The position numbers were made by a program, and so were the translations under genes. A stretch of 64,000 nucleotides of DNA, taken from the NCBI GenBank assembly GCA_002162675.1, contig MAAE01000007.1:62001-126000 (forward strand), read 5' to 3'. Below, piece after piece: positions 41,823 to 62,350 of this stretch (its first letter is position 1; each line of letters opens with the position of its first letter). The notes under the pieces are model-generated. The model was not told where the DNA came from. It searched no databases and worked only from the letters and a program-made list of their open reading frames with translations. The stretch comes from Colwellia sp. 39_35_sub15_T18 (lineage in GTDB: Bacteria > Pseudomonadota > Gammaproteobacteria > Enterobacterales > Alteromonadaceae).

Positions 41823-42800
41823 ATGAATAAAGACTTTACATTTACTATTAAGAGCACTTGTTTCGATGAAAATTATCAGCCATCAGACAATACGCGTATC
41901 ACTACCAACTTTGCTAATTTGGCCAGAGGAGACTACCGCCAAGCGAACTTGCGCAACGCCTTAAAGATGATTGACAATAGTTTTAATGCCTTAGCGCATT
42001 GGGATAACCCCAAAGGAGAACGATATTCTGTCGAACTTGACATCATTTCGGTTGATATGGATATTGAAGGCAGTGATCAAACCTTCCCATCGATTGAAAT
42101 ATTGAAAACGAATATTGTTGATCATAAAACTAACAAACGCATTGAAGGCATTGTAGGGAATAATTTTTCCTCTTATGTGCGAGATTATGATTTTAGCGTA
42201 TTACTGCAGAACCATAATAAGAATCAGCCCAAATTTAGTATTCCAGATAACTTTGGCGAACTGCATGGGAAGCTCTTTCAGTATTTTGTGAATTCAAATA
42301 GTTACAAGCAGAATTTTAATAAGCCACCGGTGATATGTCTCAGTGTTTCAGATAACAAGACCTATCATCAAACTGAAAATCAGCACCCCGTATTAGGTGT
42401 TGAATACCAGCCAAATGAATCTTCTTTGACTGAGCAATATTTCAAAAAAATGGGCTTACAGGTTCGTTATTTTATGCCGTCAAATAGTGTTGCGCCTTTG
42501 GCTTTTTATTTCTTTGGTGATTTACTTAATGATTACACTAATCTTGAGTTTATAAGCACCATCAGCACGATGGAAACTTTTCAAAAAATCTACCGACCTG
42601 AGATCTATAATGCAAATGCTGTTGCAGGAAAATCCTATCAGCCCAATTTAAAGAACCTAGATCATTCATTAACTCAAATTGTTTATGATCGAGAAGAGCG
42701 TGGCCAGCTGGCTAATGAGCAGGGAAAATTTGCTGAGGAGCACTTCATCAAACCATACCAAGCTGTTCTTGAGCAATGGTCTGCTAACTATGTTCAATAG
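41823..42800 (+). CDS. mesX: DUF1852 family protein, MesX-like
   Basis: DUF1852-type sequence (FTFTIKSTCFDENYQPSDNTRITTNFANLARGDYRQANLRNALKMID) directly upstream of a MetE-core protein. Confidence 0.8.
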   Translation: MNKDFTFTIKSTCFDENYQPSDNTRITTNFANLARGDYRQANLRNALKMIDNSFNALAHWDNPKGERYSVELDIISVDMDIEGSDQTFPSIEILKTNIVDHKTNKRIEGIVGNNFSSYVRDYDFSVLLQNHNKNQPKFSIPDNFGELHGKLFQYFVNSNSYKQNFNKPPVICLSVSDNKTYHQTENQHPVLGVEYQPNESSLTEQYFKKMGLQVRYFMPSNSVAPLAFYFFGDLLNDYTNLEFISTISTMETFQKIYRPEIYNANAVAGKSYQPNLKNLDHSLTQIVYDREERGQLANEQGKFAEEHFIKPYQAVLEQWSANYVQ

Positions 42801-42843
42801 TTACGTTCAATAGCTAGGTTCAATAGCTAGGTTCAATACTTAT
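42792..42843. repeat. Four tandem copies of a 13-bp unit GTTCAATAGCTAG
   Basis: gttcaatagttac/gttcaatagctag/gttcaatagctag/gttcaatacttat. Confidence 0.85.
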
Positions 42844-42880
42844 CTTTAATAAATAACCAAAATATACGGCATCATCTATT

Positions 42881-46547: not shown

Positions 46548-47552
46548 CTACTTTTTAAGTAAGTTTTCAACTTTCTTAAAGAATTCATAACCTTTTTCTT
46601 TTCCTTCATCCGTACCATCTTGCGAGAAGAAGTTTAACTGTTCAATTAATGATTCTTTAGCTTTTTGAGCAACAAATAGCTGAAAAGGTGAACTATCACC
46701 ACCGCTAATAACACCACGATAATGAGATAAAACACTGTAATATTCCTTACGTTTACTCATTTCTGAATCAATTACCGTTACAGGGTAATCGTGCTGAAAT
46801 AAGTATAAATTCATCACTAACCTCGAAGTACGTCCGTTACCGTCAATAAAAGGGTGAATATTTACTAATTTTTGATGAAGATGTGCCGCCATTTCAACAG
46901 GGTGTAAAATATTTTTATATTCATTGAAAAACAGAAAGAAATCTTCCATTAATTTTGGCAAAATATAAGGCTGCGGAAAATCGTGTTTACTGCCATCTTC
47001 CTGCATTACAAACACAGGCTGTTTCCTATATTGGCCTTTATGTTCGTCTTGAATACCTTTAAGTATTAGTGAGTGAATATTTTTAATTTCACGCTCTGAC
47101 AGTTCAATTTCTTGCCTAGCCAACTCACGAATATACTGGATAGCCTCTTGATGGTTGATAGCTTCTAAATGGTCTACAAGCGGTTTACCACCGATGGTTA
47201 GCCCTGTATTAATTACTTGGTCAGTTTCACCTAAGGTTAATGAGTTCCCTTCAATGCAGTTTGATTCATAGGTATATTTAATATCTAGCTCTTTATTGAG
47301 GTTTTTTACCATGCTTGGATTGAGCGGTCTAAAACTATTAAGACACTTTTTTAGCTCTGTTAGCTGACTATAAAGTTCAGGTAAATTATTCGTTTCAGGC
47401 CATATTTTAAGTAAATCTAGGCTAGCATTATATTTTCCTGACGTATTCATAATATCTAGAAGTGACGTATTAAAACGATCTTTCAAAATGAGTAACTCTG
47501 ATTTTTGACTCTCATTAAGTAAATTATCGGATTGTGGTGTGTTTATTGTCAT
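46548..47552 (-). CDS. Fic family protein
   Basis: Fic motif HPFIDGNGRTSR; inhibitory-helix-like SNCIEGN. Confidence 0.93.
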   Translation of the reverse strand: MTINTPQSDNLLNESQKSELLILKDRFNTSLLDIMNTSGKYNASLDLLKIWPETNNLPELYSQLTELKKCLNSFRPLNPSMVKNLNKELDIKYTYESNCIEGNSLTLGETDQVINTGLTIGGKPLVDHLEAINHQEAIQYIRELARQEIELSEREIKNIHSLILKGIQDEHKGQYRKQPVFVMQEDGSKHDFPQPYILPKLMEDFFLFFNEYKNILHPVEMAAHLHQKLVNIHPFIDGNGRTSRLVMNLYLFQHDYPVTVIDSEMSKRKEYYSVLSHYRGVISGGDSSPFQLFVAQKAKESLIEQLNFFSQDGTDEGKEKGYEFFKKVENLLKK

Positions 47553-59476: not shown

Positions 59477-59495
59477 GATACCCCACTTCATACCC
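59477..59495. repeat. Direct repeat left copy (19 bp) flanking AbiEi-Fic module
   Basis: gataccccacttcataccc, one mismatch to 61231-61249. Confidence 0.8.
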
Positions 59496-59614: not shown

Positions 59615-61102
59615 TTACCCCGCTGACAATGCAACTCTATATTTTGATATTTCTCTATTAAATACAGCTACACCTTGATCCGGTAACTTATGGGCAAAAT
59701 GACTTTCCAATGTTGTTCTCGCTTCTGAATAATCTACCCATTCAACAGAATGGGTATAACCATGCAAATCTGAAAAAACTTTAGTAATAGTTCTAAATTT
59801 ATTATTTCTTGTAGCATCCCTTAGACCATTTAAGTAACTATCTCGGTGTACAGTAGGAACAATTATTTTAACTTCTTCTGCACTCACTAACTCGGCATTC
59901 ATCATAATCCTTGCAAGTCGTCCATTTCCATCATCAAATGGATGGCACTCAGTAACTAGAAACTGGATAAAAATAGCTCTTGCTAGACCTTCTGGTAAGC
60001 TTTGATAGATTGGAAATGCCTGCGCAAATGTTCCCTCTATTTGATCCGGTGCTACAAATACTGTATCACCGGCTTTATTAGATTTAATTTTTAACTGCCC
60101 TGGTCTTTTTTCAGGGCGCGCGTTCATAATCAAGCTGTGACGCTGTGTTAGAAGAGCTAATAACTCTTCAACACTTTTAGGGGTCGTAGACATTTCAGTA
60201 TAATCTTGAACGACATCAAAAACGGCTAAAACATCATGACTATCTTGATGGCGATTATTGATTTCATGTTTCTCAAAAACAATTTGCTCCGCTTCTTCGA
60301 TCTCAAACTCAGTGCCTTCAATATAGTTAGAAAAATAACTCTCAAAGAATGACAAATTTCTCCAGCTAGATGAGTTGTATTGATAAGGTCTTGATACAAA
60401 TTCACATTGACGTAAATACTTAGCCAAACATTCAAATATTTCAATCCTATTTGGATCGAACGGTTCTTTTTTGGCTACAGCAATTGCTCTTTCTGTAGAT
60501 AACACCTCAATAGGCTGGGTAGATAGAATAGCACCGATCAACCGTTCAAGCGCCTGAAATTCTTTTTCCATTTTAAGTACAGAGAAATTAGCTAGTGCCT
60601 CTTCCCGGATTCGATTAAGTTCTCTTTCGCCATAACGTTCAAGTAATCGACAAAGCTCTTGTTCAACCCAATCTTTACCTAAAGATTTAGGAGCAGCTAC
60701 GTCTTTATGGCTAATTTGTAAATTTTCCAATAAATACCGTGTCGGCGAACTTCTAAATGAATTGGGCTGAAAAGGCTCCTTAAGATGCTCAACATCACCG
60801 GGAAGTACCTCAACCGTCAAGAGATCACTAATCTGTATTTTTTTACGTATTTTTACTGGTGCAGTAATATACACCACTTTATTTTCAGGCAATAGTGAGA
60901 CTGCTGTAGCATGAGAAACAACGGCAGAGGGATATAAATACCCTATAATTTGATACCACTTATTATGCAGTAATTTAGGTATATCCTCCCATGCAGCATC
61001 AGTATAAATACCTTGCCTTATTCTTTTCAACTTACCTTGAGCAACAGCCTTAGAAAACTTCTTGGCCTCAGACGTATCTTGAACAAAAATTAATTGACTC
61101 AT
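59615..61102 (-). CDS. AbiEi-like N-terminal domain fused to Fic domain
   Basis: N-term GKLKRIRQGIYTDAAWED...YPSAVVSHATAVSLLP; Fic HPFDDGNGRLAR; inhibitory motif SNYIEG. Confidence 0.88.
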   Translation of the reverse strand: MSQLIFVQDTSEAKKFSKAVAQGKLKRIRQGIYTDAAWEDIPKLLHNKWYQIIGYLYPSAVVSHATAVSLLPENKVVYITAPVKIRKKIQISDLLTVEVLPGDVEHLKEPFQPNSFRSSPTRYLLENLQISHKDVAAPKSLGKDWVEQELCRLLERYGERELNRIREEALANFSVLKMEKEFQALERLIGAILSTQPIEVLSTERAIAVAKKEPFDPNRIEIFECLAKYLRQCEFVSRPYQYNSSSWRNLSFFESYFSNYIEGTEFEIEEAEQIVFEKHEINNRHQDSHDVLAVFDVVQDYTEMSTTPKSVEELLALLTQRHSLIMNARPEKRPGQLKIKSNKAGDTVFVAPDQIEGTFAQAFPIYQSLPEGLARAIFIQFLVTECHPFDDGNGRLARIMMNAELVSAEEVKIIVPTVHRDSYLNGLRDATRNNKFRTITKVFSDLHGYTHSVEWVDYSEARTTLESHFAHKLPDQGVAVFNREISKYRVALSAG

Positions 61103-61110
61103 AGCTTAAT

Positions 61111-61223
61111 CAGTAAAAACTAAATATAAAACATATAATAAGTGAAATACTAGATATAAACAAACAGATAAGGTGAATATTAAGATATAAAAGCAATCGT
61201 ATGGGAAATATAAGATATAAAAA
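61111..61223. promoter_or_regulatory. Four iteron-like repeats (core TAAGATATAAA) at 30-31 bp spacing
   Basis: taaatataaa 61121, tagatataaa 61151, aagatataaa 61182, aagatataaa 61212, each with an upstream purine-rich (a/g)gtgaa-like half. Confidence 0.75.
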
Positions 61224-61230
61224 TAGAACC

Positions 61231-61249
61231 GATACCCCACTTTATACCC
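61231..61249. repeat. Direct repeat right copy (19 bp)
   Basis: gataccccactttataccc. Confidence 0.8.
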
Positions 61250-61450: not shown

Positions 61451-62350
61451 TTAATTATAAATAGCCAATTGTTTTGTAAAAATATTGTTAAGCATGGTTA
61501 ACTCATCCGTTCTGACATAGTTGGGTCTAATAATTAAGGCAATAGTGCGATGAGGGCTAGGTTCATTTAAATGCACAGCGACTAACTCTGACTCATTATT
61601 TATGAGTTGATCTAATGCCATTTTAGGCACAATAGTGGTGCCTATTTTCCCCGCAACCATTTGAATTAATGTATGCAAACTTGCCGCATCAAAATCGTTA
61701 TTTTGCGTATGTTTTTTTAAACTACAGGCAGCTAACGCATGTTCTTTTAAACAATGTCCTTCTTTTAATAACATTAATTTTTCTAACTCAAGTTCTTGAG
61801 TGCTGATTTCTTCTAACTGACTTTGATGCTCATCTTTATGACACACCCAATAAAAGTCTTCTTGCCATAAGTCAAAACTCATCAAACCATCAATAGGGAA
61901 AGGCAGCGCTAATATTGCTGCATCAAGCTCGCCATTCTTGACCATATCAATTAAAACATGTGACTGTTCTTCATGAATTTTTAATTTAAATTCAGGGAAC
62001 TGTTTTCTTACTTCGGGTAATACTTTAGGCAATAAGTAAGGTCCTACGGTAGGAATAACACCAATAGACATTGATGTTGAAAAGGGTGCTTTATCACGTT
62101 GTGATATTTGCATGAGCTGGTCAAGCTCTACCTTAACACGTTTCGCCTGCTCAAGAATAAGCTGCCCTTTGCTCGTCACTAATACTTTTTTATTGTTTCG
62201 TTCAAAAATATTTATCCCTAGCTGCTTTTCTAGCTCATTAATTGCTGTGCTTAATGCAGATTGAGAAACATTACAGGCATCTGCAGCTTTCTTAAAATGT
62301 AAGGTTTTCTCTATCGCGAGTGCATAGTGTAGTTGTTTTAATGAAATCAT
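61451..62350 (-). CDS. oxyR: LysR family hydrogen peroxide regulator, OxyR-like
   Basis: LysR HTH; LMLLKEGHCLKEHALAAC contains the OxyR peroxidatic Cys context; divergent from catalase. Confidence 0.88.
   Translation of the reverse strand: MISLKQLHYALAIEKTLHFKKAADACNVSQSALSTAINELEKQLGINIFERNNKKVLVTSKGQLILEQAKRVKVELDQLMQISQRDKAPFSTSMSIGVIPTVGPYLLPKVLPEVRKQFPEFKLKIHEEQSHVLIDMVKNGELDAAILALPFPIDGLMSFDLWQEDFYWVCHKDEHQSQLEEISTQELELEKLMLLKEGHCLKEHALAACSLKKHTQNNDFDAASLHTLIQMVAGKIGTTIVPKMALDQLINNESELVAVHLNEPSPHRTIALIIRPNYVRTDELTMLNNIFTKQLAIYN

What the first reader, a model, noticed from the sequence alone, without database searches (positions are those of the whole stretch)
61111..61223. Four phased iteron-like repeats immediately upstream of the AbiEi-Fic gene
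Reading the 120 bp before the start codon (61102, minus strand) shows four related ~21-bp units with core T(A/-)AGATATAAA at 61121, 61151, 61182 and 61212, a 30-31 bp spacing close to three helical turns. The third and fourth share AAGATATAAAA exactly. AbiEi antitoxins are known to bind repeats in their own promoters (established for AbiE type IV systems), so an operator for autoregulation by the gene's own N-terminal domain is a reasonable inference.
Basis: partly seen in the sequence, partly recalled or inferred. Interest (0 to 1): 0.68.

Follow-up and report, generated by a model that had tools for sequence, protein, structure and literature searches.

The report
Phased operator array of AbiEi-Fic gene
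Just upstream of a gene for a fused DNA-binding and AMP-transferring (Fic) protein lie four head-to-tail copies of a 20-base site every 30-31 bases, very probably the switch by which the protein turns down its own gene; relatives in several bacterial phyla keep the same spacing while the letters of the site change with the protein.

Summary
Four 20-bp units lie on the gene strand at 61203-61222, 61173-61192, 61142-61161 and 61112-61131, spaced 30, 31 and 30 bp. None of 3000 dinucleotide shuffles reaches the score, nor does any tile of the window away from the array.

Upstream regions of homologous AbiEi-Fic genes share the 30/31-bp period: Gammaproteobacteria z about 10; Actinomycetota and similar MAGs z 7.8; a separate set of Bacteroidota, alpha- and betaproteobacterial plasmid genes z 6.0. 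Coding and farther-upstream controls show no comparable peak, nor do genes with only an AbiEi-like or only a Fic match. Unit sequence changes by clade and tracks the N-terminal domain better than the Fic domain.

Against the nearest homologue (89% protein identity) units are 68/80 identical, ordinary spacers 6/23, putative promoter bases outside units 8/8.

Best reading: an autoregulatory operator, one protein per unit on one helical face, covering the promoter. It works like AbiE and CccR autoregulation, but with direct, not inverted, repeats. Binding and repression are inferred. New variant of a known kind.

The parts
61203..61222 (-). operator unit 1 (distal): TTTTATATCTTATATTTCCC
61173..61192 (-). 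operator unit 2: TTTTATATCTTAATATTCAC
61142..61161 (-). operator unit 3: GTTTATATCTAGTATTTCAC (lies largely between the putative -35 and -10)
61112..61131 (-). operator unit 4 (gene-proximal, second half degenerate): TTTTATATTTAGTTTTTACT
61158..61163 (-). putative -35 hexamer TTGTTT (inferred)
   Evidence: best sigma-70-like pair upstream in a weighted scan, 17-bp spacer, same pair at the same position in Paraglaciecola; not reported by the stricter scan; bases outside units conserved
61135..61140 (-). putative -10 hexamer TATTAT (inferred)
59615..61102 (-). AbiEi-Fic fusion gene, 495 aa
   Evidence: AF2 model mean pLDDT 91.9
60518..61102 (-). N-terminal AbiEi-like region (residues 1-195), predicted DNA-binding part
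   Evidence: PADLOC AbiEi E 5.6e-7; best PDB folds 1zel and 6y8q, both AbiEi-type proteins; Pfam AbiEi_4 below cut-off
59891..60151 (-). Fic core (Pfam match residues 318-404), catalytic motif HPFDDGNGRLAR at residues 387-398; the inhibitory motif SNYIEG (residues 258-263) lies N-terminal to it (class II arrangement)
   Evidence: Pfam Fic 37.5 bits, cut-off 24; motifs invariant or nearly so in relatives
59477..59495 (+). left copy of a 19-bp direct repeat bracketing array + gene: GATACCCCACTTCATACCC (end of a longer dispersed intergenic repeat)
61231..61249 (+). right copy: GATACCCCACTTTATACCC

Best explanation
The array is the autoregulatory operator of the AbiEi-Fic protein. Each 20-bp unit is a site for one protein, contacted by the AbiEi-like N-terminal region in two blocks about one turn apart. 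Units are set about three turns apart (30/31 bp, in some relatives two turns, 20/21 bp), so successive molecules bind head-to-tail on one face of the helix, probably cooperatively. The promoter lies inside the array (TTGTTT-17-TATTAT, unit 3 over its spacer, unit 4 near the start site), so a filled array blocks RNA polymerase and keeps a potentially toxic Fic enzyme scarce. Shown: array, spacing, conservation in the homologues examined, covariation with the N-terminal domain, array and gene conserved together. Inferred: binding, cooperativity, promoter, repression, toxicity.
For: Array non-random. Period 30/31 in homologues: gamma n=24 z 10.1/9.3, without window and nearest homologue 11.3/8.8, deduplicated n=18 8.6/7.9; Actinomycetota-like n=24 z 7.8 at lag 31, deduplicated n=16 z 6.1; separate plasmid set from Bacteroidota, alpha and beta n=9 z 6.0 at 31. 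Weaker secondary peaks near 21, 41, 52 and 62 fit multiples of about 10.4 bp. The array is tied to the start codon. Clade-specific unit sequence; Mantel r 0.80 with residues 1-95; partial r 0.42 (p 0.0002) given Fic, whereas Fic given the N-terminus is 0.08 (p 0.22). Window vs Paraglaciecola: units 68/80, non-promoter spacers 6/23, promoter bases outside units 8/8. DNA homology between them runs from the first unit to 3 bp past the stop codon. The 30/31 period is not seen upstream of 8 AbiEi_4-profile hits without Fic or 15 SoFic-like genes. Precedents: AbiEi autorepression (PMC3985639, PMC7319586); Fic-HTH protein CccR autorepression (PMC9755527).
Against: No binding, transcription or toxicity data. 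The N-terminal region scores below the Pfam AbiEi_4 cut-off, matches only the second half of that model, and its TM to solved AbiEi is only 0.41. Some distant homologues show no array on their own (e.g. L055, L059, L012, L024); L048 is unclear. Promoter scores are weak and the best hexamers vary in position among homologues. The Mantel test does not fully remove shared ancestry. The AbiEi_4 control group is small and some of its members look unrelated to AbiEi.
Confidence: 0.86

Rival explanations
1. The array is bound by some other host factor (the LysR-type regulator encoded upstream, a nucleoid protein, or another regulator), not by the gene's own product.
For: A LysR-family gene (61451-62350) lies directly upstream on the same strand; the repeats are AT-rich.
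Against: Neighbouring ORFs differ among the homologous loci examined while the array persists. The spacing is kept across phyla. Unit sequence follows the N-terminal domain of the adjacent gene. No other match with 0-1 mismatch in the genome.
Confidence: 0.07
2. The array is a plasmid/replicon element (iterons or centromere-like parS) captured next to the gene.
For: Direct repeats phased by helical turns resemble iterons; homologues occur on 20 plasmid records, two of them near ParA genes.
Against: No replication initiator at the window locus; many homologous loci lie on long chromosomal-type contigs; the array is tied to the start codon of this gene.
Confidence: 0.02
3. The repeats are a chance or slipped-strand feature of AT-rich intergenic DNA without function.
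For: The region is AT-rich and repeats can arise by slippage.
Against: 0 of 3000 shuffles; conserved units with unconserved spacers; different unit sequences at the same spacing in homologues.
Confidence: 0.02
4. The array is an operator, but its main role is as a DNA scaffold that switches Fic enzymatic activity (toward silence or deAMPylation) by assembling head-to-tail oligomers, with repression secondary.
For: For CbFic2, DNA binding through an HTH is proposed to shift the enzyme to a deAMPylating dimer (PMC10628234). The inhibitory motif and the DNA-binding region are conserved together.
Against: No direct evidence. One locus per cell could hold only about four molecules. Repression alone explains the position over the putative promoter.
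Confidence: 0.12

Closest known systems
AbiE type IV toxin-antitoxin operators (S. agalactiae AbiEi; M. tuberculosis Rv2827c)
   Same: AbiEi-like regulator, a box of about 20-23 bp per monomer, two or four boxes over the promoter, autorepression (PMC3985639, PMC7319586)
   Different: Those boxes are inverted repeats separated by 3, 4 or 13 bp and the regulator sits in an operon with a nucleotidyltransferase toxin. Here the boxes are direct repeats at 30/31 bp and the regulator is fused to a Fic enzyme with no partner gene.
CccR of Yersinia pseudotuberculosis (class II Fic + C-terminal HTH)
   Same: Fic enzyme with class II inhibitory motif that represses its own promoter through its DNA-binding domain (PMC9755527)
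   Different: C-terminal HTH, palindromic boxes with a 26-bp spacer bound by a dimer; here an N-terminal AbiEi-like region and tandem direct repeats.
CbFic2 of Coxiella burnetii
   Same: Class II Fic enzyme with a DNA-binding domain; DNA changes its activity (PMC10628234)
   Different: C-terminal HTH, tested with random DNA sequences; no operator array described in the passages read.
SoFic-like Fic_N genes of the same bacterial family
   Same: Several also carry repeated boxes upstream
   Different: Boxes look palindromic (ATGTCGAT...ATCGACAT) and lack the 30/31-bp period.

Membership tests
AbiEi antitoxin family (PF13338 / COG5340) | AbiEi sequence profile above the curated cut-off | tested here: not met
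   AbiEi_4 12.2 bits vs cut-off 25, covering only profile 29-46 of 49; 4 of 25 relatives match at E<=0.01. PADLOC AbiEi models do match, best 5.6e-7.
AbiEi antitoxin family (PF13338 / COG5340) | Two-domain AbiEi fold | tested here: inconclusive
   The two best PDB folds for residues 1-195 are Rv2827c (1zel) and S. agalactiae AbiEi (6y8q), prob 0.90/0.93 but TM about 0.41 and E about 0.01.
AbiE type IV toxin-antitoxin system | Adjacent AbiEii/DUF1814 nucleotidyltransferase toxin gene | tested here: not met
   No such ORF seen next to the gene; the C-terminal half is a Fic domain.
AbiE-type operator | Pairs of 23-bp inverted repeats over the promoter | tested here: not met
   Units are same-strand direct repeats; definition from PMC7319586.
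AbiE-type operator | Autorepression by the AbiEi protein | not testable with these tools
   Needs binding or reporter assay.
Class II Fic protein | HPFx(D/E)GNGRxxR motif with (S/T)xxxE(G/N) inhibitory motif N-terminal to it | tested here: met
   HPFDDGNGRLAR with SNYIEG upstream of it; catalytic histidine kept in the variant motifs of the relatives checked; Pfam Fic above cut-off.
Class II Fic protein | AMP transfer activity, autoinhibited | not testable with these tools
   Needs biochemistry.
Plasmid iterons | Direct repeats beside a replication initiator gene/origin | tested here: not met
   No initiator seen at the window locus; the array follows the AbiEi-Fic gene between differing neighbours.

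The most novel reading that the evidence does not exclude
A widespread single-gene regulator-toxin in which a DNA array with strict helical phasing both represses the gene and assembles head-to-tail Fic oligomers whose enzymatic activity is held off (or reversed) on DNA, so that loss of operator binding releases both expression and AMPylation.
Probability: 0.17. Interest if true: 0.82.

Novelty: new variant of a known kind. Interest (0 to 1): 0.62.

Why it matters
It turns a poorly described group of AbiEi-Fic fusions, found in several phyla and on plasmids, into a testable regulatory system: the operators can be predicted largely from spacing, and the specificity of the DNA-binding region can be read from natural protein-operator pairs. 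Conserved spacing with changing sequence is a clear signature of binding on one helical face. Direct-repeat operators would differ from the inverted-repeat operators of known AbiE systems and of CccR, and link DNA binding to the open question of how class II Fic enzymes are kept off and switched on. My literature searches turned up no description of such arrays or of these fusions, but only titles, abstracts and searched passages were read and that library holds only part of the literature.

Tried and rejected
Iteron/replicon reading: rejected on context. Chance in AT-rich DNA: rejected by shuffles and comparative data. Wider regulon in the genome: the unit has no other match with 0-1 mismatch, and hits with up to 3 mismatches (24 vs 17 in the reversed-pattern control) are near background. 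The simple promoter scan reported no promoter at the array; a weighted scan gave the TTGTTT/TATTAT pair, kept as inference. Empty-site test: in genus relatives homology stops at the 3' end of the LysR gene (61466-61477), so no clean empty site was found. Fold search of the whole protein listed Fic structures at the top, so the N-terminal part was modelled separately. Sequence-profile search of the N-terminal part against the PDB found nothing meaningful. Rfam gave no match reaching a gathering score near the locus. Phage collection: no relatives. My first print of upstream regions was wrong for minus-strand loci because they are not re-oriented; corrected.

Full report
OBSERVATION. The 120 bp before the start codon of the gene at 59615-61102 (minus strand) hold four related direct repeats. 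Tandem Repeats Finder reports 61107-61222, period 30, 3.9 copies, score 82, the highest-scoring row in the window. Read on the gene strand the units are TTTTATATCTTATATTTCCC, TTTTATATCTTAATATTCAC, GTTTATATCTAGTATTTCAC and TTTTATATTTAGTTTTTACT, beginning at -120, -90, -59 and -29 from the ATG. A three-copy score of 46/60 compares with 31.3 +/- 2.2 (maximum 44) in 3000 dinucleotide shuffles, and no tile of the window away from the array exceeds 38.

THE GENE. The 495-aa product has an AbiEi-like N-terminal region (PADLOC AbiEi 5.6e-7; Pfam AbiEi_4 below cut-off) and a C-terminal Fic domain with HPFDDGNGRLAR and, N-terminal to it, the inhibitory motif SNYIEG, i.e. a class II Fic arrangement. An AlphaFold2 model is confident (mean pLDDT 91.9). 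Modelled alone (pLDDT 93.0), residues 1-195 have as their two best matches in the PDB Rv2827c (1zel) and S. agalactiae AbiEi (6y8q), with modest scores (TM 0.41, prob 0.90-0.93). No nucleotidyltransferase partner gene was seen next to it.

COMPARATIVE TEST. Homologues were taken from the same family, order and class and from other phyla. A motif search that did not fix the spacing found several copies 30 or 31 bp apart in most close gammaproteobacterial loci, with none of 100 shuffles reaching the score in many of them; L037 shows anchors at 30, 21 and 30 bp. Pooled autocorrelation of the 150 bp before the gene peaks at lag 30/31: z 10.1/9.3 (n=24), 11.3/8.8 without the window and its nearest homologue, 5.8 at 31 for nine distant gammaproteobacterial homologues, 7.8 at 31 for 24 Actinomycetota and similar genomes. 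After removing near-duplicates the values are 8.6/7.9 (n=18) and 6.1 (n=16). A separate set of nine plasmid genes from Bacteroidota, alpha- and betaproteobacteria (32-39% identical proteins), not used to form the idea, gives z 6.0 at lag 31, with individual unit pairs of 14-17/18 at 30-32 bp in L090, L092, L094, L095 and L098. The coding region and the -300..-150 region show no 30/31 peak of this size. Upstream regions of eight AbiEi_4-profile hits without Fic and of 15 SoFic-like genes also lack it at lag 31 (z 1.4 and -2.5; at lag 30 -2.3 and 2.5); the first control is small and some of its members look unrelated to AbiEi.

ANATOMY. Across nine loci with the same motif type, identity between copies within a locus is about 0.8-0.96 at unit positions 1-7 and 0.73-1.0 at 12-17, and mostly 0.2-0.45 in the spacers: a 20-bp site with two blocks about one turn apart, then 10-11 bp free spacer. 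Mean spacing is 30.5 bp, and L038 and L037 also use 20/21 bp. Weaker autocorrelation peaks near 21, 41, 52 and 62 fit multiples of about 10.4 bp. This is what binding on one helical face would produce; that step is inference.

PROMOTER. TTGTTT (61163-61158), 17 bp, TATTAT (61140-61135) is the best sigma-70-like pair upstream of the window gene in a weighted scan, and the same pair is at the same place in Paraglaciecola. Unit 3 covers most of the spacer between the hexamers. Between these two genomes units are 68/80 identical, spacer bases outside the hexamers 6/23, hexamer bases outside the units 8/8. The promoter remains inferred: the stricter scan did not report it.

SPECIFICITY. The unit sequence changes with clade: TTTTATATCTAGTATTTCAC (window, Paraglaciecola), TTTATCTnnnnTAATTCGC (L038), TATATCTAATAGTTCAC (L040, L042), TTTATATTAAGTAATTC (L041, L043, L049), AATACcGCTGGAgTTCGC (L053), TATAGTTATGT (L046, L047). 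Similarity of unit profiles over 18 loci correlates with identity of residues 1-95 (Mantel r 0.80) and, given the Fic domain, still does (partial r 0.42, p 0.0002); the Fic domain given residues 1-95 adds nothing detectable (0.08, p 0.22). Shared ancestry is only partly controlled.

MOBILITY. The gene is sporadic: 1 of 39 genomes of the genus, 14 of 399 of the family. Neighbouring ORFs differ among loci. DNA homology with Paraglaciecola runs from the first unit to just past the stop codon, so array and gene are conserved, and presumably travel, as one piece. In the window this piece is bracketed by a 19-bp direct repeat (59477-59495, 61231-61249), with no other copy within 1 mismatch in the genome. 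The left copy is the end of a longer repeat found dispersed in related genomes. Several other loci also sit between repeats.

MECHANISM. Most likely the protein binds its units head-to-tail and represses its own promoter, keeping a Fic enzyme at low level. Precedents: AbiEi proteins repress their own promoters through 23-bp inverted repeats (PMC3985639, PMC7319586), and the Fic-HTH protein CccR represses its own promoter through palindromes (PMC9755527). DNA can also alter the activity of a class II Fic enzyme (CbFic2, PMC10628234), so a second role of the array in controlling the enzyme is possible but unsupported here.

VERDICT. Observation confirmed, interpretation supported and extended; geometry differs from known AbiE and CccR operators; a new variant of a known kind of autoregulation. 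Binding, repression, cooperativity and toxicity are untested.

Noticed in passing
window 59477-59495 and 61231-61249: A 19-bp direct repeat GATACCCCACTTYATACCC brackets the array plus gene. The left copy ends a longer intergenic repeat (CCGCCCA...GATACCCC) dispersed in related genomes; in L135 two copies bracket a pair of small ORFs that look like a toxin-antitoxin pair. Possible cassette or recombination site.
   Followed up: partly
L004, L042, L043, L045 flanks: Homologous AbiEi-Fic genes in other genomes also lie between repeated intergenic sequences (208 bp at 97% in L004; about 100-bp repeats in L045), suggesting recurrent insertion at dispersed repeats.
   Followed up: partly
L110, L111, L112, L115, L117, L123, L126 upstream regions: SoFic-like Fic_N genes carry their own repeated boxes upstream, mostly palindromic ATGTCGAT...ATCGACAT, with a pooled lag-40 peak (z 8.1): a likely separate autoregulatory operator type.
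   Followed up: partly
window about 46550-47550 (minus strand): A second Fic gene (334 aa from its ATG, HPFIDGNGRTSR, SNCIEG) lies downstream of what reads like the C-terminal end of a tyrosine recombinase, perhaps part of an integrated element.
   Followed up: no
L050/L052 (G758) and L047 (G142): Apparently broken copies of the gene: one split into 175-aa and 265-aa frames, one with stop codons. L047 still keeps its upstream array.
   Followed up: no
window 42788-42851: Another tandem repeat, period 13/26, score about 80.
   Followed up: no
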